This document shows positions 3,713 through 64,000 of a DNA stretch of 64,000 nt, piece after piece. The translations under genes were made by a program, and so were the position numbers. The stretch's first letter is position 1, and each line of letters starts with the position of its first letter. A model generated the notes under the pieces. That model saw only the letters and a program-made list of their open reading frames with translations, had not been told where the DNA came from and did no database searches. This stretch comes from Martinezella rhizogenes (GTDB taxonomy: Bacteria; Pseudomonadota; Alphaproteobacteria; Rhizobiales; Rhizobiaceae), in assembly GCF_007002745.1 (NCBI RefSeq), contig NZ_SGNY01000001.1, forward strand, positions 124,001 to 188,000, written 5' to 3'.

Positions 3713-6336
<2,624 letters not shown>

Positions 6337-6724
6337 ATGCCGGACCGGAAGGCGCGGGCGCTGCTCGCGCATTCCGGTTGCTGAAACAGGGGACGGCGTG
6401 GTTGCGTCCGTGCCGTTTCCAAAGGCGGGTTGGTCCATTACCGCGTGACATTTTGTCCAAGCGAAGCCTGACGTCCGACATGATACATGCCCGGATGTGA
6501 TAAATGCCAAGTTTGGCCTTTATGAATGAGCAGGCGCAGACGAATGGCGGGGTGGGCGCGGCGACAGGCCGGGCGAATGGTATCGGTTTTGGCCGATGCC
6601 GCCCATGTCGAAACGTTCGGACCCAATGAATTGACGCATCGCGCATGCCGGAAATCACCTTCGTTTTCGGGCCGGTGCAAGGGATGTCGCGGCAAGTGGC
6701 ATCTGAAGGAAAACAGGACAGGAA
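6337..6724 (+). terminator. Intergenic region ctaD-ctaB with a hairpin after ctaD
   Basis: This gap has 388 bases. At 6344-6378 an interrupted inverted repeat (accggaa...ttccggt, with an inner gcgcg/cgcgc stem) starts 8 bases after ctaD. It has no T-run, so it is more likely an mRNA-stabilising or attenuating hairpin than a full terminator. That would let the oxidase subunit I message exceed that of the assembly genes. A 41-codon open frame at 6504-6629 has no clear ribosome-binding site, and I do not call it. The rest shows nothing recognisable; ctaB may have its own promoter here. Confidence 0.35.
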
Positions 6725-7678
6725 ATGACCGTTATCGACAATCGCGACATGCTGGGTGTTGAAAGCTCCGAACTCTCGGAAGCCGGCGCGCGCGATTATT
6801 TCGAATTGCTGAAACCGCGCGTCATGTCGCTGGTCGTCTTCACGGCCTTTGCCGGCCTCGTGCTGGCGCCGGGCGAAATCAATCCGGTGCTTGGGCTGAT
6901 CGCCATTCTCTGTATCGCGGTCGGCGCCGGCGCATCCGGCGCGCTGAACATGTGGTACGATGCCGATATCGACGCCGTGATGAGCCGCACCGCAAAGCGG
7001 CCGATCCCTTCGGGTCGCATCGCGCCGCGTGAGGCCCTGGCCTTCGGGTTGACGCTGTCGGCCTTTTCGGTGGTCATCCTCGGCCTTGCAGTCAACTGGT
7101 TCTCCGCCGGCCTGCTCGCCTTCACCATCTTCTTTTACGCCGTCGTTTATACGATGTGGCTGAAGCGCTCGACGCCGCAGAATATCGTCATAGGTGGTGC
7201 TGCCGGCGCTTTCCCGCCCATGCTCGGCTGGGCCTGCGTCACCGGCGGCGTTTCGCTTGATAGCGTCATCCTGTTCCTCATCATCTTTTTGTGGACGCCT
7301 GCGCATTTCTGGGCGCTGGCGCTGTTCAAGATGCGCGATTACGGCTCCGTCGGCATTCCGATGATGCCGAATGTGGCGGGCGAACGCTCCACCAAGAACC
7401 AGATGATCGTTTACGCCGTGCTGACGGCCGCCGCTGCCGTCGCACCGTATTTCACGGGTCTGGCGAGCGCCGGTTACGGTATTTTCGCCGCGGTGCTGAG
7501 CGCTATCTTCGTTTATTGTTCGCTCGATGTCCGGCGCATGCCCGAGGGTGACGAGAAGATGCTGCCGGCCAAGAAGATGTTTGCCTATTCGGTGCTTTAC
7601 CTCTTCGCCATCTTTTCCGGCCTTCTGGCCGATCATTTCGCTCCGGCCCTGAAGGCCGTGATTTCGGGAGTTCTGTGA
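6725..7678 (+). CDS. ctaB: Protoheme IX farnesyltransferase (heme O synthase)
   Basis: This membrane prenyltransferase turns heme b into heme o, the first step toward heme a for the aa3 oxidase. The 317-aa product belongs to the UbiA superfamily with about nine membrane helices. The first Asp-rich motif is seen as '[19 protein letters not shown]' and the second conserved loop as '[17 protein letters not shown]'. ATG 6725 follows AGGACAGGAA. The stop overlaps the start of the next small gene (TGATG), so ctaB is translationally coupled to it. Confidence 0.95.
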
Positions 7679-7809
7679 TGGAAACGGTGGAACTGAGCGC
7701 GGCGCAGAAAAAGTCGAGACGCGGACGCAACATCGCGCTCGGCGTCCTGCTCGCCGGTCTGGTGGTGCTGTTCTACATCATCACCATCATCAAGATCGGC
7801 TCGCATTAA
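7678..7809 (+). CDS. Small single-span protein of the oxidase cluster (CtaF/CoxF-like)
   Basis: This 43-aa ORF is easily missed. ATG 7678 overlaps the ctaB stop as TGATG, and the frame ends at TAA 7809, 28 bases before ctaG. The product has a charged N-terminus (SAAQKKSRRGRN), one membrane helix (about residues 20-38, IALGVLLAGLVVLFYIITI) and a short polar tail. A one-helix protein at this place between ctaB and ctaG is a recurrent feature of alphaproteobacterial oxidase clusters, usually called CoxF/CtaF or hypothetical. Its role is unproven; assembly or stability of the oxidase is the natural guess. Confidence 0.75.
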   Translation: METVELSAAQKKSRRGRNIALGVLLAGLVVLFYIITIIKIGSH

Positions 7810-7837
7810 GGGCTGATTGAGGGGAGAGGAGGAGGAC

Positions 7838-8455
7838 ATGGCGAATATGGAAACGCAGACGGTGGGAACCGGCAGGCAAAGGGTGAGCAATCGCTCGATC
7901 CTGGTGCTTTGTCTCGTATTTTTCTGCGCCATGATCGGCATGGCCTATGCCGCCGTGCCGCTCTACACCCTGTTCTGCCGCGTCACCGGTTATAACGGCA
8001 CGACCCAGCGCGTCGAGCAATATTCCGACGTCATCCTCGACAAGACCATCAACGTCACCTTCGACGCCAACACGTCGAACGGCCTCAACTGGGATTTCCA
8101 GCCGGTCGACAGGATGGTCAAGCCGAAGATCGGCGAAACGGTGCAGGTGACGTTCAAGGCGACCAACCGCTCGCCCGTGGCGACCACGGGAACGGCGGTC
8201 TTCAACGTCACGCCGATGGAGGCGGGCGCTTATTTCAACAAGGTGGAGTGTTTCTGCTTTACCGAAACGACGCTGCAGCCGGGCGAAACACTGGAAATGC
8301 CGGTGGTTTTCTTTGTCGATCCCGACATCGCCACGGCGCGCGAAACCAAGAGCATTCATACTTTGACGCTGTCCTATACGTTTTATCCGGCCAAAACCGA
8401 AAAACCGGTTGCGTCCTTGCCGGTAAAGACTGAATCTGGCGAAAGCAAATTGTGA
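7838..8455 (+). CDS. ctaG: Cytochrome c oxidase assembly protein CtaG (Cox11)
   Basis: Cox11/CtaG delivers copper to the CuB site of subunit I. ATG 7838 with GGAGGA just upstream gives 205 aa; the frame also extends to an ATG at 7817, which I regard as leader. There is an N-terminal membrane anchor (about residues 18-40), then the periplasmic immunoglobulin-like domain. The copper-binding CFCF motif is present in '[16 protein letters not shown]', and a further Cys lies just after the anchor ([11 protein letters not shown]), as in the family. It sits between the small CtaF-like gene and ctaE. Confidence 0.95.
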
Positions 8456-8513
8456 GAGGAGATCTGGCCTTCTTGAGGCCGGATCAGGGAAGAGATACCA
8501 GGGGATTGTCGCA

Positions 8514-9389
8514 ATGGCAGACACGCATCAGAAGAACCACGACTACCACATCATAGACCCAAGCCCCTGGCCGCTTCTGGCCTCGATCGGCGCTTTCATC
8601 CTGACCTTCGGCGGCGTCTGTTACATGCGTTACCTGTCGGGCGGCTCGTTCAAGCTGTTCGGCGCGGAACTCGCCAACCCCTGGCTTTTCTATATCGGTC
8701 TCGTCATCGTGCTTTACACCATGTATGCGTGGTGGGCGGATACGATCAAGGAAGCCAATGAGGGCAGCCATACCCGCGTCGTGTCGCTGCATCTGCGTTA
8801 CGGCATGATCATGTTCATCGCTTCGGAAGTGATGTTCTTCGTGGCGTGGTTCTGGGCCTATTTTGATGCCAGCCTCTTCCCGCATGAGGCCATTCAGGCG
8901 TCCCGTCTTGAATATACCGGCGGTCAATGGCCGCCCAAGGGCATCGAAGTCATCGATCCCTGGCACCTGCCGCTCTACAACACCGTTATCCTGCTTCTGT
9001 CGGGCACCTGCGTCACCTGGGCGCACCATGCGCTGCTGCACAATGACCGCAAGGGCCTGATCAGCGGCCTCGCGCTCACCGTGGCGCTCGGCGTGTTGTT
9101 CTCCACCGTGCAGGTTTACGAATACATTCACGCCCCGTTCGATTTCAAGAACTCGATCTATGGCGCGACCTTCTTCATGGCTACCGGTTTCCACGGTTTC
9201 CACGTCTTCGTCGGCACGATCTTCCTTCTGGTCTGCCTGTTCCGCGCCATTGCTGGCGGTTTCACGCCCAAGCAGCACTTCGGCTTCGAAGCGGCTGCCT
9301 GGTACTGGCACTTCGTTGACGTCGTCTGGCTGTTCCTGTTCTTCGCCATCTACATCTGGGGTGGCTGGGGCGCGCCGGTCCACGGTTAA
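8514..9389 (+). CDS. ctaE: Cytochrome c oxidase subunit III
   Basis: The product has 291 aa and seven predicted membrane helices, the size of alphaproteobacterial and mitochondrial COX3. Recognisable blocks are 'HDYHIIDPSPWPLLAS' at the N-terminus, 'MIMFIASEVMFFVAWFWAYF' with the conserved Glu, and 'AAAWYWHFVDVVWLFLF' at the C-terminus. Subunit III is part of the core complex; it stabilises the active site against turnover inactivation. It starts 58 bases after ctaG. A RIME-like repeat follows the gene and probably marks the transcript end. Confidence 0.96.
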   Translation: MADTHQKNHDYHIIDPSPWPLLASIGAFILTFGGVCYMRYLSGGSFKLFGAELANPWLFYIGLVIVLYTMYAWWADTIKEANEGSHTRVVSLHLRYGMIMFIASEVMFFVAWFWAYFDASLFPHEAIQASRLEYTGGQWPPKGIEVIDPWHLPLYNTVILLLSGTCVTWAHHALLHNDRKGLISGLALTVALGVLFSTVQVYEYIHAPFDFKNSIYGATFFMATGFHGFHVFVGTIFLLVCLFRAIAGGFTPKQHFGFEAAAWYWHFVDVVWLFLFFAIYIWGGWGAPVHG

Positions 9390-9444
9390 ACGACGTCGGA
9401 TCGTCTACCACGTTGCTTCTGAATCGAGCGGGTACCGCACATCT

Positions 9445-9561
9445 CTTCTCCCCGCCGGGGAGAAGTCCGCGGCAACGGGATGAGGGGGCTACGGTGAAGA
9501 TAGGCCGATAGCTGGCCCCTTATCCGACCCTTCGGACCACCTTCTCCCCGGCGGGGAGAAG
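9445..9561. repeat. RIME-like mosaic element, copy 1
   Basis: Two near-identical 21-base palindromes, cttctccccgccggggagaag (9445-9465) and cttctccccggcggggagaag (9541-9561), flank a core containing 'gcaacgggatgagggggc' and 'ccgacccttcggaccacc'. This is the layout I know from Rhizobium-specific intergenic mosaic elements. A second copy in inverted orientation lies at 49592-49709. It lies downstream of ctaE and may act as a transcript-end hairpin. Confidence 0.8.
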
Positions 9562-9627
9562 AAAGTCGCGGCGCCGGCTCGCAACAAACAAGTGCCCGGG
9601 TTCTGAGGCAAGCTTCCAGGAGATAGG

Positions 9628-9706
9628 ACGTCATCCTCGGGCTTGTCTCGAGGATCCATAGCCCGCTGAAATCGTGGGTCCTCGGCTCAAGCCCGAGGCG
9701 GACGGG
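9628..9706. repeat. Intergenic palindromic repeat, family C (copy 1)
   Basis: It begins gacgtcatcctcgggcttg and has the inverted partner 'ggctcaagcccgaggcggac' near its end, with 'cgaggatccatagcccgctg' between. Further copies are at 13989-14021 (short form), 41306-41395 and 48264-48352. It lies just before the DUF983 gene, so with the RIME-like element it fills the 349-base gap after ctaE. Confidence 0.7.
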
Positions 9707-9738
9707 CGAGGGGTCAGGCAACTTCGCGGGAGGTCATC

Positions 9739-10125
9739 ATGTCAGAACCATCAAACGGCAATTTTGCGCCTGTTGATCCCATCAAGGTGGGCTTGAAAGG
9801 CTGCTGCCCGCGTTGTGGTAACGGCCGGCTGTTCGACGGTTTCCTGACGCCGAAACCGGCCTGCAGCGCCTGCGGACTGGATTATGGTTTCGCTGACGCG
9901 GGTGATGGTCCGGCGGTCTTCGTCATGTTGATCGTCGGTTTTCTGGTTGTCGGGCTGGCGCTGTGGTTCGACCAGCGTTTTGCGCCACCCGTCTGGGTGC
10001 ATGTCATGCTCTGGTTGCCGTTTACGGTGATTGTTTCGCTCGTGCTGCTGCGCAAGCTCAAGGGCATCATGATTGCGCTGCAATACCGCAACAATGCAAG
10101 CGAAGGCAGGCTTGATCGTGAATGA
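9739..10125 (+). CDS. DUF983 family zinc-ribbon membrane protein
   Basis: The protein has 128 aa. Two CxxC pairs make an N-terminal zinc ribbon (GCCPRCGNGRLFDGF...PACSACGLDY), followed by two membrane helices (about residues 53-73 and 80-100). DUF983 genes commonly sit between ctaE and surf1 in alphaproteobacteria, which suggests but does not prove a part in oxidase biogenesis. An AGG-containing site precedes ATG 9739, and the gene ends 10 bases before the SURF1 start. Function is unknown. Confidence 0.85.
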   Translation: MSEPSNGNFAPVDPIKVGLKGCCPRCGNGRLFDGFLTPKPACSACGLDYGFADAGDGPAVFVMLIVGFLVVGLALWFDQRFAPPVWVHVMLWLPFTVIVSLVLLRKLKGIMIALQYRNNASEGRLDRE

Positions 10126-10135
10126 GGTTTCCCAC

Positions 10136-10870
10136 ATGAAGGCGGCGGACAGACGGGTCTGGTTCGCCGCGCCGCTGGTGCTGCTGGCGCTTGCCATCCT
10201 TCTCGGGCTCGGCACCTGGCAGGTGAAACGGCTTTACTGGAAAGAAGCGCTTATGGCCGATATCGAGGAGCGGCTGAGCGCGAGCCCGGTTCCGCTTGCC
10301 GATATCGAGGCAATGGCGAAAAGCGGCGGCGATATCGAATATCGCAAGGTCAGGCTCTCAGGCACGTTCGATCACGGCGGCGAGCGCCATTTCTTCGCCA
10401 CCCACCAGGGCCGAACCGGTTATTACATCTATACGCCGCTGACGCTTGCCGATGGCCGCATCCTTTTCGTCAATCGCGGCTTTGTGCCCTTCGAGATGAA
10501 GGAACAGGCCAAACGGGCCGAAGGACAGGTAACCGGCGAGGTGGTAATAACAGGGCTGGCACGCGCGCCCCTGGTCGCAAAACCCTCCTCGCTGCTGCCG
10601 GATAACGATATCGCCAAGAACATCTTCTACTGGAAGGATCTGGCGGTGATGGCCTCGAGCGTCGATATTCCCTCCAACCGGCTGGTCAACCTCTTCGTGG
10701 ATGCCGACAATGCGCAAAATCCCGGCGGTTGGCCGCAGGGTGGCGTGACGCTGATAGATTTGCCCAACAATCACCTGCAATATGCGATAACGTGGTATGG
10801 CTTGGCGCTGGCCCTTGTCATCGTCGTTGGTTTTGCCTATTTCCGGAACCATAAGGCGCGCGACGAATAA
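10136..10870 (+). CDS. SURF1 family oxidase assembly protein
   Basis: SURF1/Shy1 proteins help insert heme a into subunit I of cytochrome oxidase. From ATG 10136 (GAGG about 9 bases upstream) the product has 244 aa. It begins with a membrane helix (about 10-28) and the family signature '[16 protein letters not shown]', and ends with a second helix ('[20 protein letters not shown]'). An in-frame GTG at 10118 is an alternative start overlapping the DUF983 stop. The mid-domain has the typical '[10 protein letters not shown]' strand. It closes the oxidase biogenesis block. Confidence 0.92.
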
Positions 10871-10946
10871 TGTGCGCCCCGCCCGGCAAGGGGCAGGCTA
10901 TCGGGCAAGGCATGGAGCACGCCAAGAAGCAGGCCAAGGAGCACGA

Positions 10947-11993
10947 ATGAACATCGCCGTTTCCAAACCCCCTTTGACAATAAGGCTGTGCGGACCGCGC
11001 GGCTTTTGCGCGGGCGTGGACAGGGCGATCCAGATCGTCGTGCTGGCGCTGAAGGCCTATGGTGCGCCGGTCTATGTCCGCCACGAAATCGTGCATAATC
11101 GCTATGTGGTGGAAGGGCTGGAAGCCAAGGGCGCGGTTTTCGTCGAGGAACTGCATGAAATCCCTGCCGAACATCGCGAACAGCCGGTGGTTTTTTCCGC
11201 CCATGGTGTGCCGAAATCCGTGCCTGAGGATGCGCAGGCGCGTAACCTGTTTTATCTCGATGCCACATGCCCGCTGGTCTCCAAGGTTCACAAGCAGGCC
11301 ATGCGCCACCAGCGCCTTGGCCGCCATGTGGTGCTGATTGGCCATGCCGGTCACCCGGAGGTCATCGGCACCATGGGCCAGCTGCCAGAAGGAACCGTCT
11401 CGCTGGTCGAAACCGTGGAAGACGCTGGCACATATGAACCGGTGGACCGTGAAAATCTCGGTTTCGTCACCCAGACGACGCTGTCGGTCGATGATACCGC
11501 CGGCGTCATTGCCCGTCTGCAGGAACGTTTCCCCGCCATTCAGGCGCCTGCCGCCGACAGCATCTGTTACGCAACCACCAACCGTCAGGATGCGGTGAAA
11601 CAGGCAGCACCCGGCTGCGACCTGTTCATCGTTGTCGGCGCACCCAATTCCTCCAACTCCAAGCGGCTGGTGGAAGTGGCGCTGCGGGCCGGGGCAAAGC
11701 ACTCCGTGCTGGTGCAGCGGGCGGCGGAAATCGACTGGAACGCGATCGGCGATATCCGCACCGTTGGTCTTTCGGCTGGCGCATCCGCGCCTGAAGTTAT
11801 CGTCGATGAAATCATCGAGGCCTTCAAGGCACGGTTCGACACCACGCTCGATCTTGCCGTGACGGTTGAGGAAACGGAACATTTCCTCGTCAACCGCGAG
11901 CTGCGCAGCATCGAGCTGACGACGGATGACATGGCGTTCGTCAACGGCAATGCCAGCAATGCGCTGCCGCCGAAGACCGCCGCCGGGGCCTAG
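10947..11993 (+). CDS. ispH: 4-hydroxy-3-methylbut-2-enyl diphosphate reductase
   Basis: IspH carries out the last step of the MEP isoprenoid pathway, making IPP and DMAPP from HMBPP with a 4Fe-4S cluster. ATG 10947 has AAGGAG at 10937-10941, giving 348 aa. The open frame reaches back to 10797 but overlaps the SURF1 gene. Cluster cysteines are visible in '[14 protein letters not shown]' (Cys21), '[13 protein letters not shown]' and '[11 protein letters not shown]'; substrate-binding His residues are in '[10 protein letters not shown]' and 'FSAHGVP'. The neighbouring ctaB uses farnesyl diphosphate, so the placement makes metabolic sense, though no direct link is shown. Confidence 0.97.
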
Positions 11994-51140: not shown

Positions 51141-53198
51141 ATGGCAACGATTCAACACGTCTACAAGCGCGGTTCGGTCTACTGGTGGCGACGGCGTTTA
51201 CCACTTGGAACAGGTGTCCATGCTTGGGTGAGGCTCGAAATCAGCCTGCACACCAAGGAACTGGAACGGGTGCGGGTCGTCGCTCCGGAGGTGACGCTTG
51301 CCAGCCATCGTCTCCTGCCCAGCCTGAGACAAAAGATGATATCGCCGGAAGACGCAAAGAAAATCCTGATACACGCCGCCAAGCAGCACAGCTTCCATCT
51401 GGATTCGATGATGGCGGCCGGTTCCAGAACAGGCGTCGACGCAGCAAGTAAGCGTTTAACGGAAATTCAGAGCGGTTGGGCGTTACGCCTGTTCGCCGCC
51501 CAAGGGATCAATGCAAGGATTGGTCCCGACGAAGAGCGCCAAATGCGCGCTGCCGGACTTGATGACGAGATGATCCACGGCGTTCGTGAGACAATGGGGT
51601 TCCTCAGTACCAATGGATTTGGCCAAATCGGTCGCCGTCAGCTGGAGGCTATCCTCCAGGACCACAACATCGCGCCGGCGGAAACGCACATCCTCCAAGC
51701 AGAGCAGCTTTGCTTGCGCGGCATGTCGGCAGCGTTGCTCAATACCGAACGGCGATGGTCCGGCGTCCGACCTGATGATATTGCCCTCCTCAATGCGGCG
51801 CTTGTCGGCGATACCGCAGCGACGGCTGTATCGCACGCTGCTTCGTCTCAATCCGTGTCGCAGCGAACGTCGGTAGCACCATTTGGAAGTCGAACTGTAC
51901 CGTCGTTTTCGCAACCTTACACACCTCTTGAGAAGGTGCCTGCATCTGTTCGTACGATCGCGGTTGCCGCCCCTCCGGTTGAAACCGAGGACGAATTCGA
52001 TCTCGACGATGAGGATGAAGCGGAACTGGAACTGCAGGATTCGGACAAGGGACTTGTCGAAATCGTCCAACTGGCAGCGGAGGAGAGGGTCGCAACCAAA
52101 GAATGGCGTCACAAGATGATTAAGCAACACGTGAGTATTGCCAAGTTGTTGGTTCGATTCGTCGGACACGACCAGCCGGCACGCTTGAGGCAGCGAAACA
52201 TCTCGGAATTCCGAAGCATGCTGTTCAAGCTTCCGAAAAATCATGGAAAGTCGCCGAACGACCATATCATGCCCCTCAGCGAGCTTCTGGCTCGTGCCAC
52301 GACGTTGCCGCCCGAGGAGGTTGGCTTGTCGCCCGCGACGATAAATCGCTACATGACCCAAATGGGCAACATCGTGGACATCTGCAAACACGCCGGATTT
52401 CCATTCGGGAATTTCGAGGGCGTTTCCGGCCTGCGAACCAAGAGGAAGGGCGACGTCAGAAACGAGCGTGGACGTTTCTCAACCGAGGAACTGCAGACCA
52501 TCTTCTCGCTGCCAGTGTGGGAGGGGTCGAGTAGCTTCGACGAGCGCTTCGGCGGCGGAGACGAAATCTTCCATGACGCGGCCTATTGGGTTCCTTTACT
52601 GGCGATCTATGTCGGAACTCGTCGTGAAGAGATGTGTGGCTTGCTCCTCGATGAGGTCGAGACCCATTTTGAGCTTCCGTGCATCCGCATTGAGGAAAAC
52701 TTCGTCCGCAAGCTGAAAAACGCTCAATCGAAGCGGCGCGTGCCCATCCACCCAGAGCTGCTTCGCCTCGGATTCCTTGAATACGTTGATGAGCTTCGCA
52801 ATCTCGGTCACGTCCTGTTGTTCCCCGAACTGAAGGCTGCATCCCCTACGACGCCGATGGGTGACGTGTTTGATGACAGCTGGCAAAAAATACGATCGAC
52901 AGCGCTGCCCAAGGCCAAGGATGATGGGAAGGTCCTGCATTCGCTGCGCCATTGGTGCAACAATGAAATGAAGCAGGCCGGCATTCGGGAGGAGTACCGA
53001 AAGGACATCCTGGGGCACACCAACGAGGGTGTGAATGAGGGGCGTTACACCGATCCGGCGCGGCTGCGTGTCATGGCCGATGCACTGTCAACATTGCCTT
53101 TACCGACCGCGCATTTGAAAGCTCATCCAATCCGACCGATCGAGTCAGTCCTGACGCATTCTTCCCGACCGGCACGAACCAAGAAAACTGCGACGTAA
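51141..53198 (+). CDS. Tyrosine recombinase/integrase of the island
   Basis: The protein has 685 aa, long for this family. It starts MATIQHVYKRGSVYWWRRRL, the DUF6538-type N-terminus seen in island integrases. The middle (about 150-300) includes an acidic low-complexity linker (ETEDEFDLDDEDEAELELQD). The catalytic domain has Arg494 (GTRREE), His600-x-x-Arg603 (HSLRHW), His626 (LGHTNEG) and Tyr636 (EGRYTD), so all key residues are present. It should integrate and excise the element at the tRNA-Gln. AGGAAAGG precedes ATG 51141. Confidence 0.9.
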   Translation: MATIQHVYKRGSVYWWRRRLPLGTGVHAWVRLEISLHTKELERVRVVAPEVTLASHRLLPSLRQKMISPEDAKKILIHAAKQHSFHLDSMMAAGSRTGVDAASKRLTEIQSGWALRLFAAQGINARIGPDEERQMRAAGLDDEMIHGVRETMGFLSTNGFGQIGRRQLEAILQDHNIAPAETHILQAEQLCLRGMSAALLNTERRWSGVRPDDIALLNAALVGDTAATAVSHAASSQSVSQRTSVAPFGSRTVPSFSQPYTPLEKVPASVRTIAVAAPPVETEDEFDLDDEDEAELELQDSDKGLVEIVQLAAEERVATKEWRHKMIKQHVSIAKLLVRFVGHDQPARLRQRNISEFRSMLFKLPKNHGKSPNDHIMPLSELLARATTLPPEEVGLSPATINRYMTQMGNIVDICKHAGFPFGNFEGVSGLRTKRKGDVRNERGRFSTEELQTIFSLPVWEGSSSFDERFGGGDEIFHDAAYWVPLLAIYVGTRREEMCGLLLDEVETHFELPCIRIEENFVRKLKNAQSKRRVPIHPELLRLGFLEYVDELRNLGHVLLFPELKAASPTTPMGDVFDDSWQKIRSTALPKAKDDGKVLHSLRHWCNNEMKQAGIREEYRKDILGHTNEGVNEGRYTDPARLRVMADALSTLPLPTAHLKAHPIRPIESVLTHSSRPARTKKTAT

Positions 53199-56060: not shown

Positions 56061-56480
56061 ATGAGCCGACACACTTCTAACGTGATCCCTTTCCCAAACA
56101 ACCTCCCGCACGAAGCACCTCCGACGCCGAAGCCATCCAGCCGGATGAAGCGACTGGCGAAGTTGCAAGAGGCGACGAGCTGCGGGGCGACTTCCATGTC
56201 ACAAGCCATTCCTCAGGCCATGGCCATGTGCGCGGCAAAGCCAGATGCCTCGCCCGATCCGGCGATCGTCGCCCAGGTCGTGATCGGTTTTGCCCGACGC
56301 AAAGGTATCGCCATGACCAGCGTCCCGAAAATCTTCCGTGAACAACTCCTCACGCTGTGTGCGGTCAGCGATCCGACTGCGCTGATGTTACGCGACTGGC
56401 TTGAGGGCAATCGCAAGCTGCTGGGCGTCATTGGTATGCCGACACCTCACGGTATTCATGGAACGGAGGAGGGCGCGTGA
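56061..56480 (+). CDS. Small unknown protein upstream of the AAA+ ATPase
   Basis: From ATG 56061 (AGGAG upstream) the product has 139 aa. It begins with a basic, Pro-rich segment (SNVIPFPNNLPHEAPPTPKP) and then a helical part ('ATSCGATSMSQAIPQAMAM', 'AQVVIGFARRKGIAMTSVPK', 'TALMLRDWLEGNRK'). The stop overlaps the ATPase start (TGATG), which suggests translational coupling and a functional link. No known domain. The frame is open from 55863, but that part overlaps the nuclease-like gene. Confidence 0.65.
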   Translation: MSRHTSNVIPFPNNLPHEAPPTPKPSSRMKRLAKLQEATSCGATSMSQAIPQAMAMCAAKPDASPDPAIVAQVVIGFARRKGIAMTSVPKIFREQLLTLCAVSDPTALMLRDWLEGNRKLLGVIGMPTPHGIHGTEEGA

Positions 56481-58516
56481 TGGAAACGCTCACTGATCGC
56501 ATCACGCGTTATCTGTTTGCCCGCATCCGCCGGCTGGCCATCCTCGATCTTTACGAGCGCGCCTCAGTCGTCGGATTGCTGGAGGCGGACTTCATCGTCG
56601 CTGGGGATGAGACGACCGGTACGGTCTGGCGTGTCCCGGAGCAATCCCTGCGATTGCTCGACGCCGACCCGGCTTGGGCGCGCGCCGAACTCATGCGGCG
56701 TCTCGGGAAAGCGCCATATAGGACGACGGCAATCGACGTGCTGATCCGGGACATTCCAGGAGAACCGCCACATGAAAACGTCCGTTCCGCCCCGAAGGGC
56801 AGGACCGATCGGGAAAACCATGCCGCATGCCGCCGCCCGAAATCGGGAGCCGATGCTGCATCGAGCGTTTCTGAAGCACCATCGGCGTCCAGCGAATTTC
56901 TGGCGCTGCTTCGCGAGCAGCTTGCTCCGCCAAGCGTCGCCCATGTCGCAGTCGCCCTATTGGTCGCCCGTGCCGTTGGTTCAAGCGTTCCCGACCTGTC
57001 GGTGCTCTCGGCCGCACTTCGGAACCCGGGAGCCTTCGTCTTGATCAAAGCACCGGTTGGCCGTTTCGAACGCCGCTTCGGTCTGATGCTCGAAGATGGC
57101 TTGATCCTGCCGTACTGGACGAAACTCGAAGACGTTCATCGCAGCAGCCCGCTCTCGGACGGATACGGTGATCGCCGCCGGGGAAAGACCCGTAAGACGA
57201 TCAAGACACTAGCCGGCACCGATGTGCCGAAGGCGGTCGAGCGATCGTTGAGCCGGTTCCTCGTGGATGTCCTGCTGGAGCGGTCAGCGCCCGTGGTTCT
57301 TGCCGATGAGACAAAGACCGCGCTTCCGCCCTTTGTGTCGATGACGGCCGATCTCGTTCTCGAGAGCGGTGGCCTCGATCATGAACTGATCGCGGAACTC
57401 CTGCAGACGTGTTGCGGTATCGCGCCGAAGCAGTCGCTGCGGCAGATGGAGAAGATGGCGCTTGATCTTGAAGGGCTTTCGATCGATGCGCTGGCGCTGG
57501 CTGTTCGTCCCGGACGTGGTCTCGATAGCATCCTGTCAATCCTCGAAGTCCTCGGCGAACGGGCGCGCTCCTCCGACAAGTCGGACGATGATGACGATGA
57601 CGGTCGCAACTCCGGGCGCGGTAGCGATCGGTCGGGGCGGCCGAAGGTCAAGAGCCGGTTTTTGATCAAGGACGGTGATGACCCACCAAAATCCGTGGAT
57701 GGGATCGATGTCGTTCAGCCGGAGAAGCTGGCGGAGACATCCGGGAAGGAGGGCAGCGGCAGCGCATCCGTTGATCCGGCCAATCCGGAACACAGCCGGC
57801 TGCGTCAGCTGCGGGTCGAGAGACTCTCGGGCTATGGCGACGCACACGGTTGGGCGCTCGACCTCAAGACAGACCTTCAGCTCTGGCGCGACGGTGGGCT
57901 GGCCTGGAGCGAGATGAGTACGAAACTAATGCTGTCGGGATCGCCCGGCACCGGCAAGACGACCTATGCCCGCGCGCTTTGCAATACGTTGCAGGTTCCG
58001 CTGCTGGTGACGTCGGTAGCCTCCTGGCTTGAGCCTGGTTATCTCGGTGACGTTCTCAAGCGCATGTCCAAGGCGTTCGAGCTGGCACGGGAAAATGCTC
58101 CGGTCATCCTGTTCATCGACGAAATCGACAACATCGGAAGCCGGTCCGCAGGTCGACGGGAGCAGCACGATGACTACTGGCACTCGCTGATCAATCGGCT
58201 GCTTGAGCTTCTCGATGGAACCTCGAAGACCGATGGCGTGATCGTCATTGCCGCGACGAACCTCCCCGAAAAGATTGATCCGGCACTGTTGCGATCGGGC
58301 CGACTGGAAAAGCATGTCGCGATCCCTTTGCCGGATATGGAGGCACTGGCCGGCATCCTCGCTCATCATCTCGGTGACGATCTGGCTGGTGTGTTGGCGT
58401 CTGCGCCGTCATGCCGTCCCAAAACGATCGAAACAGCACGGCAACAACAGGTCCATGTCGGCGGTGATGCAGATGTCATCGACCAGTCCAATCGCGGAGT
58501 ATCCCAAGATGCCTGA
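56480..58516 (+). CDS. AAA+ ATPase, FtsH-like core without lid
   Basis: The product has 678 aa. The N-terminal 400 residues have no clear family. A low-complexity acidic linker (DKSDDDDDDG) comes at about 375. The AAA+ core has Walker A GSPGTGKT (487-494), Walker B 'VILFIDEIDN' (about 542-551), sensor-1 'IAATNLPEK' and arginine-finger region 'LLRSGRLEKH'. After 'GILAHHLGDDLAGVLASAP' the frame runs into a tail unlike FtsH and stops at 58516. The expected helical lid is found instead in the next reading frame (58509). No membrane helix is seen, unlike FtsH. Either a frameshift or a two-gene system. Confidence 0.8.
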   Translation: METLTDRITRYLFARIRRLAILDLYERASVVGLLEADFIVAGDETTGTVWRVPEQSLRLLDADPAWARAELMRRLGKAPYRTTAIDVLIRDIPGEPPHENVRSAPKGRTDRENHAACRRPKSGADAASSVSEAPSASSEFLALLREQLAPPSVAHVAVALLVARAVGSSVPDLSVLSAALRNPGAFVLIKAPVGRFERRFGLMLEDGLILPYWTKLEDVHRSSPLSDGYGDRRRGKTRKTIKTLAGTDVPKAVERSLSRFLVDVLLERSAPVVLADETKTALPPFVSMTADLVLESGGLDHELIAELLQTCCGIAPKQSLRQMEKMALDLEGLSIDALALAVRPGRGLDSILSILEVLGERARSSDKSDDDDDDGRNSGRGSDRSGRPKVKSRFLIKDGDDPPKSVDGIDVVQPEKLAETSGKEGSGSASVDPANPEHSRLRQLRVERLSGYGDAHGWALDLKTDLQLWRDGGLAWSEMSTKLMLSGSPGTGKTTYARALCNTLQVPLLVTSVASWLEPGYLGDVLKRMSKAFELARENAPVILFIDEIDNIGSRSAGRREQHDDYWHSLINRLLELLDGTSKTDGVIVIAATNLPEKIDPALLRSGRLEKHVAIPLPDMEALAGILAHHLGDDLAGVLASAPSCRPKTIETARQQQVHVGGDADVIDQSNRGVSQDA

Positions 58517-59258
58517 AGCCAGCCAGACGATTACACCTGAGCAGCATCCCGATCTTCGACGGCTGGCCTTGCTGGCGACCGGCAGCACCGGAGCCGACAT
58601 AGAACGACTTGTGCGTGACGTTCGCCGGAAAACCAGAAGGCAGCAGCGGTCGCTGACTTGGGGCGATCTTGAGCATGCCTTGCTGGCCGGCCAGGTGAAA
58701 CTCTCCGACGATGTGCGCTGGCGTACCGCCATCCACGAGGCGGGACATGCGATCGCCTTCTGTGACATGGGGATCGCAGAGGTCATCACCGCAAGCATCG
58801 GGATCGGAGGAATGGGGCAGGTGGTCAGCCGGCAAGGTCAACATCTCCCGCAGACGCAGGACTGGCTGATGCGCAGCATCGCCTGCATGCTGGCCGGGCG
58901 TACGGCAGAGCTGCTCATCTTTGGCGACACGGTGGCCGGGGCAGGTGGATACGATGATAGCGATCTGGCCAGGGCCACCGAACATGCGGTCGCCGCCGAG
59001 ACCCGGCTCGGATTCTCCAATCATCAGCCGTTGCTCTATCGGTCAGTGGCAGGAAGCATCAACGAGCTCAGTCTCGACCGGCATCTGGCTGAGCGGGTCA
59101 ACAGTCGCCTGATGGAAGCCGAAGCGATGGCCCGCAGTCTGCTGGAGAACAGGCGGGACGCGCTGGTCGCCATCGCCACGCGGTTGAAGGACGTCGGGGT
59201 CATGACGGGCGAGGAGATCACGCACCTGCTCGTCGCGTCCGCTGGTCCACCGACCTGA
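58509..59258 (+). CDS. M41-type zinc peptidase with AAA+ lid, in overlapping frame
   Basis: From ATG 58509 the product has 249 aa, starting 8 bases before the ATPase stop, with GGAG about 9 bases upstream. It opens with an AAA+ lid-like segment ('LRRLALLATGSTGADIERLV') and continues into a peptidase M41 domain: HEAGH (76-80) and a downstream Asp in 'GGYDDSDLARATEHA' that fits the third zinc ligand. So the ligands look intact. The reading frame is +1 relative to the ATPase and is also open from 58248. It could be separately translated, reached by frameshifting, or a broken remnant. Confidence 0.75.
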   Translation: MPEASQTITPEQHPDLRRLALLATGSTGADIERLVRDVRRKTRRQQRSLTWGDLEHALLAGQVKLSDDVRWRTAIHEAGHAIAFCDMGIAEVITASIGIGGMGQVVSRQGQHLPQTQDWLMRSIACMLAGRTAELLIFGDTVAGAGGYDDSDLARATEHAVAAETRLGFSNHQPLLYRSVAGSINELSLDRHLAERVNSRLMEAEAMARSLLENRRDALVAIATRLKDVGVMTGEEITHLLVASAGPPT

Positions 59259-60394: not shown

Positions 60395-62491
60395 TCAAAC
60401 GTGAAGCAAGTCCTCCAGGAACTCTGAACCGGGCCCAACCGCGGAGACGAAGAGATGATCCCGGGCGCGGGTTGCGGCGACGTAGAGCAGTTGTCGTTCT
60501 GTCGCCACGACCTCGTCCAACTCGAACTCGTCGGCGACGTCATCGATGCGCGCCGCCAACGGCAACACACCTTCATCGCAGGCGACGATTAATACAGCAC
60601 GGAATTCTAATCCCTTTGCGAGATGCATCGTACCGATGAGCATTGCCTCTTCAGGGCCTCGCCCAGCAAGCGATGAAACTGTCTCGACGGCTGCCAGTTC
60701 GGCGACCTTCGATGCACGAGCTATCTGCTCGTTTGATCGGCAGAAGATGCCGATCTCGTTTGCTTTAATTCCCTGTTCCAGAAGGTTGCGAAGGAATTGC
60801 GAGGCAGCCGTAGCCTCTTCCTCAATTGTTGGTGCGACGACGATAACAGGCTCGACGCCATCGAATACCGATACCGTACCCTTGCGCAGGTCCTCCTCAC
60901 CGTCGACGTCTCGGACACTTTCGGGAAGCAGCCGGTCCGCCATCCTTCTTATCTGATGCGAGGTGCGATAGTTGACCTTGAGCGTGAAAGACCGCCCGCG
61001 CACGTCGATACCCAGCCCCTTCCAGGAAAATGGTTGCTGAAAGATGCGCTGGCCGATGTCTCCGGCGAAGAAGAGCGAGTCCGGTCGGTTGGGCACGATG
61101 GCGCTCAGGAACCGCAGTTCGGCGACGCCGAGGTCCTGGGCCTCATCGACGACTACATGCGTGTAAGGCTTTTCGGTGCGGTCTTCGAAATGCTTGGTGA
61201 CCACGGTGAACAGGTCCGCAGAGGTCAGTAGAGCTTTCGTTCGCAACTGCTTGCAGACCTCCGAGAAGACTGTCCAGAGCTCTTCGCGTTGCTTCGAGCC
61301 AAGCCGGTTCTTACGTCCCATCCTCGGTACTGTTGCATAGGTTTCGGCGCTGTCGATCTGCCAAGCGTCGATCACATGCTCCCATTCTGAATTGAGAAAC
61401 TGAGGAGTATACCTCGTCACGTTCACCGCCTTCGTGGAGTCGGCGATAAGTGCCCTCAGTTTTTCTCGGCCGACCAGATAGGCCTTCCGACCCGTCATGA
61501 GCGCGAACAGGTCAGCTGCCGCTTGTTCGAATGACGATATGGTCACCCTGTCGGCGAGAGAGGGGCTGTCGGCAAGGAGCACGCCAAGCTTGCGCTTCAG
61601 CGCGGCGGCAAGCGGCTCCGAGAAGGTCGTCAAGAGCACCTTCGCCTGAGGCTCGTTGCGGAGAATGCGTGCGACCCGGTGTAAGGCGACCACGGTCTTT
61701 CCGGTGCCAGCCGAGCCGACCACGCGCACCGGTCCAGAAAAGTCCCGGTCCACCAACGCCCGCTGTGACGGATGAAGGAACACCGACCATTTTTCGAATG
61801 GCTGGTCGAGCGCCGCGGCCAGTTCCTCATGCCCTTCCAGGATACGGAACCGCCGTTGCGCATCAGGATGGCTATAGGGATCGGTGGTAACCGGCGCCGG
61901 CTTACTCAGAACACCTGTTGCGGCATATTCCAGCAAGGCCTCGGCGGCTTCCTGCGGTAAATGACCGGCGAGCGTGAAGAATTTGTCTTCGCTTGCGTCG
62001 AGGACGTCCCTGATCCAGTCCTCTGGGACACCGATCGACAGTGCGTCGTCGGTGGATAATTTCGAAAAAAGCGGCAGTGTCGAAACCGACGGCGTAGCTG
62101 GAACGAGGAACGGCAACTCTGGCTGTCGTGCCGGCGCCGGCTGGACCACGATCTCTTCGACCCGTTCGCGCACTTCGACGATCTGAAGTGCACCTGTGCG
62201 CGAATGGGTCTCGATCCGGCGTCGTTCTGCCCATTTGTAGGCGTCGTCGTGGTGGTCGACATAGGCGAGCATGACGCTGTCGCCGGTCTTATGGATGATG
62301 ATCCGGAGATCGCGATTGACCCGGACCGACCAGAAGTTCGGGTCCTTGGACGCATCGATCCTGTGGAACTGCAGGCCTGGCCGGTTCGGATCGGTCTGCA
62401 GGTCGAACGCCGTCAGCTTCACCTGTTTCTGCTCGTCATTGGTCAGCTTGGCCAAGGATGCGGTAAAGCTGTCGGCGAGGATGGTGGGCAT
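60395..62491 (-). CDS. UvrD-like SF1 helicase with RelE/ParE-like N-terminal domain
   Basis: The protein has 698 aa. Residues about 1-95 look like a RelE/ParE-fold domain: 'FTASLAKLTNDEQKQVKL', 'FWSVRVNRDLRIIIHKTG' and 'LAYVDHHDDAYKWAERR'. The helicase follows: Walker A 'GSAGTGKTVVALHR' (about 258), motif II 'VVVDEAQDLG', motif IV-like 'VNYRTSHQIRRMA', motif V 'IGTMHLAKGLEFRAVLI' and motif VI 'LLYVAATRARDHLFV'. It overlaps the HNH gene by 1 base (TGATG) and should be made together with it. A nuclease-coupled anti-phage or DNA-repair role is inferred; Gabija uses a similar nuclease + UvrD logic. Confidence 0.85.
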   Translation of the reverse strand: MPTILADSFTASLAKLTNDEQKQVKLTAFDLQTDPNRPGLQFHRIDASKDPNFWSVRVNRDLRIIIHKTGDSVMLAYVDHHDDAYKWAERRRIETHSRTGALQIVEVRERVEEIVVQPAPARQPELPFLVPATPSVSTLPLFSKLSTDDALSIGVPEDWIRDVLDASEDKFFTLAGHLPQEAAEALLEYAATGVLSKPAPVTTDPYSHPDAQRRFRILEGHEELAAALDQPFEKWSVFLHPSQRALVDRDFSGPVRVVGSAGTGKTVVALHRVARILRNEPQAKVLLTTFSEPLAAALKRKLGVLLADSPSLADRVTISSFEQAAADLFALMTGRKAYLVGREKLRALIADSTKAVNVTRYTPQFLNSEWEHVIDAWQIDSAETYATVPRMGRKNRLGSKQREELWTVFSEVCKQLRTKALLTSADLFTVVTKHFEDRTEKPYTHVVVDEAQDLGVAELRFLSAIVPNRPDSLFFAGDIGQRIFQQPFSWKGLGIDVRGRSFTLKVNYRTSHQIRRMADRLLPESVRDVDGEEDLRKGTVSVFDGVEPVIVVAPTIEEEATAASQFLRNLLEQGIKANEIGIFCRSNEQIARASKVAELAAVETVSSLAGRGPEEAMLIGTMHLAKGLEFRAVLIVACDEGVLPLAARIDDVADEFELDEVVATERQLLYVAATRARDHLFVSAVGPGSEFLEDLLHV

Positions 62492-63348
62492 CAGTATGGT
62501 CCCCGTGATTCTTCGGCTTTTCGAAACTCTTCGAATCGATACAGTAAAATGTCTGGATCGGGGCGAGATGCCTCATCGTTGATCGCATTTACCAACAGCC
62601 CATCATGAGCTGCGTATTCAGATCGCGCGATGCGCTTGGAAACAACCACCTTCAGGCGATTGTTGATCGGCTCAAAGCCGATCAGTTGTTTGTCAAAGAG
62701 CACATGCACATCTGCCCGGAGCGCAATCCCGTTGCGGACGTCATTTGTCTTCGGACCAAGGTATCTGAAGAGATGTGCGGCCTCGACAACTGCTGAGGTC
62801 CGAGACCGAGTAACTGCGCATCGCTTCCAGGCCAATAGTACCTGCTTGCGGAAATCTCGCTGGCCTTCGCGAACAACGTTGAGAGACTCGGTTCGCCTGC
62901 GTTCATCCACTGGATCAGCCAAGTTGAAATCCAGGCCGGATAGAAGAGGGAGTGGTCCTGGCGACACCCGCCGCACCAACTCGCGACGTAGAAGTTCGAG
63001 TCTCGACAGGAGGCGGGGCCCTGGAGTCGCTGCCAAGATCGTCCGATCTGACGATAAGTGAAAATGAATGTGTTCGCTTCCACGGTTGGCGAGAAATTTG
63101 ATACAGCCGGCATCGAGGGATCGTACCTCGCCGTCAATCGTCCTGAAGGCATAGGGGACGGGAGCGCCGAGCTTCCAGAAGAGGCCGACGAAAACCTTCT
63201 CGAAGAAGTCGGTTCGGGCCGTTTTCCCAAGCGCCTTATCCCCGAGCGTCTCTGGAGTGTAGAATTTTGGGTTCTGACCGCGGGAGAAAGGGTGACTCGG
63301 CTCTCGCCAGTCGGGGATTGAAACAGGTAATTGGGGAAATTCCTCCAT
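62491..63348 (-). CDS. HNH endonuclease
   Basis: The protein has 285 aa. The C-terminal half carries an HNH_2-like domain at about 177-225: 'CAVTRSRTSAVVEAAHLFRY', then 'NDVRNGIALRADVHVLFD', with the His pair, Asn and His in order. The N-terminal half is helical/beta with 'LDAGCIKFLANRGSEHIHFHL' and no known domain. It is co-directional with the helicase, one base overlapping, and 144 bases downstream of another minus-strand gene. Known HNH proteins cut DNA; the target here is unknown. Confidence 0.82.
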   Translation of the reverse strand: MEEFPQLPVSIPDWREPSHPFSRGQNPKFYTPETLGDKALGKTARTDFFEKVFVGLFWKLGAPVPYAFRTIDGEVRSLDAGCIKFLANRGSEHIHFHLSSDRTILAATPGPRLLSRLELLRRELVRRVSPGPLPLLSGLDFNLADPVDERRRTESLNVVREGQRDFRKQVLLAWKRCAVTRSRTSAVVEAAHLFRYLGPKTNDVRNGIALRADVHVLFDKQLIGFEPINNRLKVVVSKRIARSEYAAHDGLLVNAINDEASRPDPDILLYRFEEFRKAEESRGPY

Positions 63349-63492
63349 CCCTAAACATCAGACCTTATATATCCAGACCAATCGCATCTTAGGATTGATC
63401 AAAATCCGTTAAGATATAATCCTCTTGGAACGCCTCGTACCGCCGCCACTGCCGCAGTTGACTATTCTCTACCGAACGCAAACGTGAGCCGA

Positions 63493-64000
63493 TCAGTGGG
63501 TTGCTGGCCATGAAAAATCAAATCGGCCGACGTATAGCGTGTCATGCAGACGCTGCAGATCATGTTCCCATTCGCCAATCGCCCGACGATAGGAGGGGTT
63601 TTGCCGGCGCTTGGCGTTTCGAACAAACGCGGCGATGGTTTCCGCCAGTTTGTGTAGCCTGCGTAGCGAATTTGGCGTGCCCCAGAGTGCCATATGCGGA
63701 CTCGGCAGGACAGGAGGCAGAGCAATTCTGAATACCCGATCGAGTATCGCGTATCTCATCGAAGGGGTAAGCACGCTTAGTTGGCCTACTTTGTATCCAA
63801 AGAAGGATAGAACGCCATCTTCAGGCGCATCAAACGAGTTTAAGCTTCCGTTGCCCTTTAGAGCGTCTGTGGACGGCCATTTGAAATATTCCCCGTCGAG
63901 TGCGAGTAGTTGTTCCTCAATCCTCGCAAGCTGCTCGAGCGCCTTCTTTCTGACCTCCTCACTTGCTGTTTGATTAAGAGATAAATTCAACTGCCTTAAC
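63493..64000 (-). CDS. Unknown protein, N-terminus outside the window
   Basis: The frame ends at 63493 and is open to the window edge; TTG 63990 is only one possible start, so it may begin outside. The visible part (about 168 aa) contains 'FFGYKVGQLSVLTPSMRYAI', 'LPSPHMALWGTPNSLRRLHK' and 'AIGEWEHDLQRLHDTLYV'. The pattern 'GYxVG...R..IL...' with 'WG.P.S..RL' and 'W..DL..L' recurs at the ends of bacterial nuclease/helicase-type proteins, I believe, but I cannot name it. It precedes the HNH-helicase pair and may belong to the same operon. Confidence 0.6.
   Translation of the reverse strand, partial: LRQLNLSLNQTASEEVRKKALEQLARIEEQLLALDGEYFKWPSTDALKGNGSLNSFDAPEDGVLSFFGYKVGQLSVLTPSMRYAILDRVFRIALPPVLPSPHMALWGTPNSLRRLHKLAETIAAFVRNAKRRQNPSYRRAIGEWEHDLQRLHDTLYVGRFDFSWPATH

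What the first reader, a model, noticed from the sequence alone, without database searches (positions are those of the whole stretch)
60395..64000. Nuclease-helicase operon: HNH + RelE/ParE-UvrD fusion + unknown partner
Seen: three minus-strand genes in order, the last two overlapping by one base (TGATG). An HNH nuclease is paired with an SF1 helicase that carries a RelE/ParE-like fold at its N-terminus, directly in a tRNA-bound island. Known: Gabija combines a nuclease with a UvrD-like helicase, and RelE folds are toxins or RNases. Inferred: a defence module in which the helicase senses DNA and the HNH and/or RelE-like part acts. The combination does not match a named system I know.
Basis: partly seen in the sequence, partly recalled or inferred. 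Interest (0 to 1): 0.85.

Follow-up and report, generated by a model that had tools for sequence, protein, structure and literature searches.

The report
Restriction operon with RelE-helicase and swappable nucleases
Three genes seen at the window edge are the tail of a larger bacterial operon, probably an anti-phage variant of a Type III restriction-modification system, that carries a fused RelE-like/helicase protein and exchangeable extra genes, several of them DNA-cutting enzymes.

Summary
The genes are real but not a free-standing three-gene system. They are the 3' end of an eight-gene operon that runs off the window: Res (SF2 helicase-nuclease), GmrSD, REase-ARP, beta-flower-like protein, Type III-like Mod methyltransferase, unknown, HNH, RelE-UvrD. 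It lies beside a complete type I Zorya, in an island at tRNA-Gln. The RelE-UvrD fusion is already published as ArmD of ARMADA II (PMC12458937). What I did not find in print is its second home. In two genome draws 48 genomes carry it: 34 have Mod upstream on the same strand, 7 have ARMADA II-like neighbours, 4 are cut by contig ends, 3 have neither. The Mod-linked helicases fall in one supported clade. Some loci are just Res-Mod-RelE-UvrD; others carry extra genes, nucleases and unknowns, in two slots. The HNH and the 63493 gene are such cargo, absent from the nearest relative's operon. The HNH domain resembles modification-dependent restriction enzymes. Best reading: a Type III-like R-M variant with an ArmD-type helicase plus back-up nucleases. 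New variant of a known kind; RelE activity untested.

The parts
60395..62491 (-). RelE-UvrD fusion (ArmD-type SF1 helicase), 698 aa; last gene of the operon
   Evidence: ArmD precedent PMC12458937
62207..62491 (-). N-terminal RelE/HigB-like domain (residues 1-95); R63, H81, D82, A84, Y85, W87 identical in 37 of 37, D61 and H80 in 36 of 37
   Evidence: PF05015 E=0.0032; PDB profile hits RelE3 E=0.012 and HigB E=0.099; conservation; model topology
62491..63348 (-). HNH endonuclease with a conserved N-terminal domain (285 aa); slot-B cargo gene
62671..62820 (-). HNH_2 nuclease motif (residues 177-226)
   Evidence: PF13391 E=3e-12; H192, N206, H215 in the list of invariant columns of a 39-row alignment
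62959..63348 (-). N-terminal domain of the HNH protein (residues 1-130), which also occurs alone as a protein of about 141 aa in the same operon slot elsewhere
63493..64000 (-). 3' part of the 63493 gene; the full protein is about 356 aa if it starts at L003:1564 (G000:C1:188563). C-terminal domain of about 150 aa shared with WYL and Mrr_N fusions
   Evidence: relative between Mod and helicase of L156
50900..50974 (+). tRNA-Gln at the left edge of the island
51141..53198 (+). Phage_integrase-type ORF (685 aa) next to the tRNA
   Evidence: PF00589 E=2.5e-5, 24.5 bits, cut-off 27.1

Best explanation
The three genes are the tail of a Type III-like restriction-modification operon whose conserved core is Res - Mod - RelE-UvrD. 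Mod methylates the host's own sites. Res, an SF2 motor with a PD-(D/E)XK-like end, attacks incoming DNA that lacks the mark. The RelE-UvrD helicase translocates on or unwinds the attacked DNA and is needed for full defence, as its relative ArmD is in ARMADA II; its RelE part probably cuts or binds RNA or DNA at that site. Between the core genes sit two cargo slots. Here they hold GmrSD, REase-ARP and a beta-flower-like protein (slot A), and the 63493 protein and an HNH nuclease (slot B). The cargo nucleases most likely catch phages whose modified DNA escapes the core. Shown here: gene content, order, conservation, clade structure, slot exchange, kinship of the HNH domain to modification-dependent enzymes. 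Inferred: division of labour, RelE activity, anti-phage effect.
Against: No activity was tested. Three genomes (G359, G369, G106) carry RelE-UvrD with no Res or Mod match in the stretch fetched. Eight Mod-positive order genomes lack RelE-UvrD: six have the classical Mod-Res order, but G277 (L122, Mod incomplete) has Res-GmrSD-Mod without it, and G334 has only a Mod fragment; a second Res-Mod locus of G203 (L114) also lacks it. So the core can occur without the helicase. Res has no PDB relative by single-sequence search, and its RE_endonuc match is only E=0.01, so 'Type III' rests mainly on Mod and motifs. The RelE match is statistically weak on its own. Cap5, a CBASS HNH effector, ties with EcoKMcrA in the HNH fold comparison. 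Neighbourhood does not prove a shared mechanism.
Confidence: 0.7

Rival explanations
1. The RelE domain is an abortive-infection effector: when the core is defeated, the helicase senses stalled or cut DNA and frees RelE to cleave mRNA, stopping the cell.
For: RelE/HigB-like fold and strictly conserved R63, H81 and Y85 in 37 of 37 proteins, four of them from ARMADA-like loci; the profile alignment puts R63 and H81 on an Arg and a His of HigB.
Against: ARMADA II with the related ArmD protects without growth arrest (PMC12458937). No antitoxin family appeared among the operon proteins scanned.
Confidence: 0.2
2. The RelE-like domain is only a docking or DNA-binding fold that ties the helicase to Mod-bound DNA and has no nuclease activity.
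For: It is found next to two different methyltransferase systems; invariant W87, A84 and D82 are not classical RelE catalytic residues (recalled).
Against: Residues at catalytic positions are also invariant.
Confidence: 0.35
3. One reading: HNH, RelE-UvrD and the 63493 protein form their own three-gene nuclease-helicase system.
For: One-base overlap HNH/helicase.
Against: 8 of 39 operons, window included, hold a member of this cluster in slot B (L155 could not be measured); three of the 8 are N-domain only, without HNH; the nearest relative's operon has neither HNH nor the 63493 gene.
Confidence: 0.08
4. The helicase is a repair or recombination enzyme that shelters in defence islands.
For: UvrD/Rep/PcrA fold.
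Against: Present in 25 of 397 order genomes and 26 of 398 phylum genomes, so not core; tightly linked to Mod.
Confidence: 0.05

Closest known systems
ARMADA Type II (ArmABCD), ArmD subunit (PMC12458937)
   Same: RelE-like N-terminus fused to a GajB/UvrD-like SF1 helicase, encoded last in the operon after a methyltransferase gene; the preprint reports it beside Zorya in E. coli islands, and a Zorya stands here too.
   Different: No YprA (ArmC), BrxHII-like (ArmA) or PglX-like (ArmB) gene in the 19 kb read: tblastn of Allomeiothermus ArmA, B and C finds only a weak ArmA match inside ZorD. Res and a Type III Mod take their place. ARMADA-like helicases are 28-37% identical to the window's over the RelE-linker part.
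Type III restriction-modification (EcoP15I-like Mod/Res)
   Same: Mod of the Type III kind and an SF2 ResIII helicase with a PD-(D/E)XK-like end.
   Different: Gene order Res-Mod instead of Mod-Res, an added SF1 RelE-helicase, and two cargo slots.
Gabija (GajAB)
   Same: GajB-like UvrD helicase (PADLOC GajB E=1.3e-30).
   Different: No GajA found; different partners; RelE domain added.
Modification-dependent HNH enzymes VcaM4I, TagI, EcoKMcrA, ScoMcrA
   Different: The N-terminal part gave no SRA, EVE or SBD match in the lists; only weak winged-helix-like matches.
GmrSD/BrxU Type IV enzymes next to BREX
   Same: GmrSD-like nuclease as add-on to a methylation-based system (BrxU as described in passages of PMC10952713).
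   Different: Sits inside a Res-Mod operon slot and is replaced by other genes in relatives.

Membership tests
ARMADA Type II | RelE-UvrD (ArmD) as last gene | tested here: met
   compared with the preprint's description and with ARMADA-like loci, not with the E. coli ArmD sequence itself
ARMADA Type II | YprA helicase (ArmC), BrxHII-like (ArmA) and PglX-like (ArmB) genes in the operon | tested here: not met
   tblastn of Allomeiothermus ArmA/B/C on L003: one weak ArmA match, inside ZorD; the same queries find L171 and L175. The queries match DrmD/BrxHII, DrmMI and DruE models, as expected for ARMADA
Type III restriction-modification | Mod methyltransferase of Type III kind | tested here: met
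   PDLC03632 1189 bits; PF01555; PDB Mod matches; DPPY and FDPTCGSG motifs
Type III restriction-modification | Res: SF2 helicase plus PD-(D/E)XK endonuclease, next to Mod | tested here: met
   PF04851 E=6e-9; NF046055 restriction endonuclease; motifs. Weak points: RE_endonuc only E=0.01, PADLOC REase_III 1.4e-6, no PDB match
Type III restriction-modification | Cleavage needing two unmethylated inverted sites | not testable with these tools
   biochemistry needed
Gabija | GajA (OLD-like ATPase/TOPRIM nuclease) next to GajB | tested here: not met
   no GajA model among the hits of the HNH and 63493 proteins or of Res, GmrSD, REase-ARP, flower and the unknown protein; Mod's list showed its best 25 of 58, all methyltransferases
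RelE/HigB toxin superfamily | RelE fold in residues 1-95 | tested here: met
   PF05015 E=0.0032, below cut-off; of 7 PDB profile hits at E 0.012-0.49, 6 are toxins and one (EngB) is not; model topology helix-helix-4 strands-helix; the preprint calls ArmD RelE-like. The fold search of the model was filled by helicases and did not test this part
RelE/HigB toxin superfamily | RNase active site and toxicity | tested here: inconclusive
   R63, H81, D82, Y85 identical in 37 of 37; activity not testable
Modification-dependent HNH restriction enzymes | HNH domain of this kind | tested here: met
Modification-dependent HNH restriction enzymes | Modified-base reader domain (SRA, EVE or SBD) | tested here: inconclusive

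The most novel reading that the evidence does not exclude
RelE-UvrD is a portable defence module that two different methylation-based systems have taken up as a regular partner. In the Res-Mod form it turns a Type III enzyme into a modular platform with two gene slots for exchangeable, modification-sensing nucleases. The RelE part acts on RNA at the attacked DNA, for example on phage transcripts or R-loops met by the helicase, so that DNA restriction and RNA cutting are coupled without killing the cell.
Probability: 0.2. Interest if true: 0.82.

Novelty: new variant of a known kind. Interest (0 to 1): 0.58.

Why it matters
It shows that the ArmD-type RelE-helicase of ARMADA II also belongs, as one clade, to a Res-Mod operon, so its role can be compared in two different machines. 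A minimal three-gene form exists (Res-Mod-RelE-UvrD), which makes the question of what RelE does in a defence system testable with few genes. The two cargo slots are also a source of uncharacterised nucleases and small proteins linked to restriction.

Tried and rejected
Gabija membership: no GajA found. ARMADA membership: ArmA/B/C not found. HNH as the fixed partner of the helicase: its cluster fills slot B in 8 of 39 operons and is absent from the nearest relative's operon. The genome-contig scan with the HNH alignment gave only 4 loci, because a single short pattern was used; the genome search was used instead. Of the 25 order genomes with an HNH match, 4 have RelE-UvrD within the short flanks fetched; most of the others match over the HNH part only. 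Fold search of the full RelE-UvrD model was filled by helicases and says nothing about residues 1-234; the model is only moderate (pLDDT 70.7, pTM 0.43). Second att copy: none at the pattern used. The Ralstonia survey PMC7251935 lists the domains in separate rows. Literature searches in which I saw no Res-Mod-RelE-UvrD system: (openly licensed PMC papers only; I judged most papers by their listing). Of PMC12458937 I read parts 1-4 of 8 and passages, not its supplement. Of PMC5512222, PMC12839542, PMC10853773, PMC10952713 and PMC7251935 I saw passages only. Recalled, from no call: TagI as SRA-HNH, VcaM4I as EVE-HNH and modification-dependent, the RelE/HigB catalytic residues, classical Type III mechanism.

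Limits of the counts: the 48 genomes are a union of two draws (397 and 398 genomes) whose positives share G000, G042 and G301; the draws share other genomes too. The 71 slot proteins of 100 aa or more in 42 clusters overestimate the number of families and may include false ORFs; slot B of L155 was not measured, and slot A not in L095, L106, L110 and L155. ARMADA labels are mine, from layout and from matches to Allomeiothermus genes that I chose by layout; 5 of the 7 counted loci show ArmA-, ArmB- and ArmC-like genes, 2 (L113, L174, short stretches) only ArmC-like. ORF starts were taken as the first possible start, so Res may begin later than L003:10995. Zorya-like genes near several loci have no control.

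Full report
Observation. The three ORFs exist as described: RelE-UvrD 60395-62491, HNH 62491-63348 and an ORF ending at 63493, all on the minus strand, the first two sharing base 62491. The window ends inside the third gene. The window is G000:C1:124001-188000, so I read on (L003; window position = L003 position + 62999). The 63493 protein is about 356 aa if it starts at L003:1564.

The whole operon. On the same strand upstream lie Mod (L003:1582-4488, 968 aa), a beta-flower-like protein (4504-4842; PF21786 E=7e-5, under its cut-off), REase-ARP (4892-5860, PF22558 E=1.7e-44), a GmrSD/DUF262 protein with DGQQR and HHIFP motifs (5864-7774) and Res (7771-10995). Gaps between these five are -4, 3, 49 and 15 bp. 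Res belongs to NF046055 (1274 bits), Mod to a PADLOC Type III methyltransferase model (1189 bits), with Type III Mod proteins as its best PDB relatives. Divergent from the Res ORF, 167 bp away, stands a complete Zorya type I set, ZorA to ZorD. To the left the island starts at tRNA-Gln with an integrase ORF.

The RelE-UvrD protein. Residues from about 240 on are an SF1 helicase. Residues 1-95 are RelE/HigB-like: weak by sequence (PF05015 E=0.0032; RelE3 E=0.012, HigB E=0.099), with the expected order of helices and strands in the model. R63, H81, D82, A84, Y85 and W87 are identical in all 37 proteins aligned, four of them from ARMADA-like loci. The fusion is published as ArmD of ARMADA Type II, where all four genes and the ArmD Walker A lysine were needed and protection was non-abortive (PMC12458937). 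I saw no RelE mutant in the parts read.

Two homes. In a draw of 397 genomes of the order, 25 carry the RelE-plus-linker part and 27 carry the Mod; 19 have both (Fisher p = 2.8e-21). In a draw of 398 genomes of the phylum 26 carry it. The union is 48 genomes; I fetched stretches around the other 47 besides the window's own. In 34 (window included) Mod lies upstream on the same strand; in 30 of these Res was also found upstream in the stretch. In 7 the neighbours are ARMADA II-like: ArmA-, ArmB- and ArmC-like in 5, ArmC-like only in 2 (L113, L174). In 4 the contig ends too soon (G042, G181, G190, G496). In 3 (G359, G369, G106) neither was seen. Named plasmids show the same two layouts: Pseudomonas amygdali, Rhizobium leguminosarum and Shinella (Res-Mod), Thermus and Allomeiothermus (ARMADA II-like). 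The Allomeiothermus genes that I used as ArmA, ArmB and ArmC queries best match PADLOC models DrmD, DrmMI and DruE, in keeping with the preprint's description. In a 54-row tree the Mod-linked helicases lie in one clade with 100/100 support (42 rows: 39 linked, 2 unlinked, 1 contig edge); the 10 ARMADA-linked ones and L111 lie outside it. Against a simple story: 8 of the 27 Mod-positive order genomes lack RelE-UvrD. Six of these have the classical Mod-Res order; G277 (L122) has Res-GmrSD-Mod, with Mod incomplete, and no helicase; G334 (L121) shows only a Mod fragment. A second Res-Mod locus of G203 (L114) also has no helicase.

Cargo slots. In 38 Mod-linked loci besides the window I looked at the gaps. 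Five have at most 99 bp between the core genes on both sides (L092, L094, L096, L161, L164): a three-gene core, though the Mod of L092 is interrupted. The others carry genes between Res and Mod (slot A), between Mod and helicase (slot B) or both, where this could be measured. Together with the window's five cargo genes, 71 proteins of 100 aa or more fall into 42 BLAST clusters, an upper bound. Of ten slot proteins scanned against Pfam, three had a nuclease match above cut-off (PDDEXK_4, GmrSD, SNase), one a nuclease match below it (Mrr_cat), one a weak membrane-type match and five none; one of those five matches the PADLOC candidate PDC-S42. The window's cargo has relatives in the same slots elsewhere: GmrSD in L101, L103, L104, L131 and L165; REase-ARP (52%) and the 63493 protein (33%) in L156.

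63493 protein. Fifty proteins matched, one of them the window's own. Fifteen, the window's own included, cover 77% or more of the query, many from Rhizobium; several lie on contigs whose lengths equal those of listed RelE-UvrD homologues (for example 5139379, 5695028, 1043994 and 225505 bp). The rest match mainly a C-terminal domain of about 150 aa, which also occurs fused to Mrr_N (P0238) or WYL (P0248) domains. No Pfam family was found for it at E up to 0.1.

Mechanism. Mod marks host DNA; Res attacks unmarked DNA; RelE-UvrD works on that DNA or on RNA next to it; cargo nucleases cover phages with altered DNA. The first two steps follow from established Type III enzymes, the third from ArmD by analogy, the fourth from the kinship of GmrSD and HNH to Type IV enzymes. 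None was tested. The RelE part could be an RNase, a fail-safe toxin or a docking fold; conservation favours a function of the active-site positions, and the non-abortive phenotype of ARMADA II argues against a routine suicide role.

Novelty. The fusion protein is known; the kind of system (Type III-like R-M plus accessory nucleases) is known in outline; the recurring Res-Mod-RelE-UvrD core with two cargo slots was not seen in the searches named under Tried and rejected. I rate it a new variant of a known kind.

Noticed in passing
L003:11163-18605 (window position = L003 position + 62999, outside the window): Complete Zorya type I set (ZorA-ZorD), divergent from the Res-Mod operon. By tblastn, Zorya-like genes also lie in the fetched stretch at L102 (all four), L099 and L100 (all four, distant), L104 and L109 (ZorD only), L105 and L106 (ZorA-like only). 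The preprint reports Zorya-Druantia-ARMADA arrays in E. coli.
   Followed up: partly
window 56477-59258 (+): An AAA ATPase ORF (PF00004; PADLOC IetA match) overlapped in another frame by an ORF with a peptidase M41 domain: an FtsH-like pair of domains divided between two frames, or two overlapping genes.
   Followed up: partly
L125 (G358:C129): A stand-alone copy of the HNH protein's N-terminal domain (150-aa frame, one internal TAG) with no Res, Mod or helicase relative on the 11-kb contig.
   Followed up: partly
L111 (G106:C1): A divergent RelE-UvrD (41% identical) with neither Res-Mod nor a full ARMADA set beside it, next to an SNF2-like ORF on the other strand; its place in the tree is unsure (long branch).
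   Followed up: partly
L131:9405-10220 and L158 slot A: A shared slot-A cargo cluster (271 and 249 aa) without a name in my calls, next to GmrSD in the Shinella plasmid.
   Followed up: no
L006, L092, L102, L107, L160: Mod or helicase genes interrupted by stops or frame changes in several relatives, which may mean decay of the system or assembly errors.
   Followed up: no
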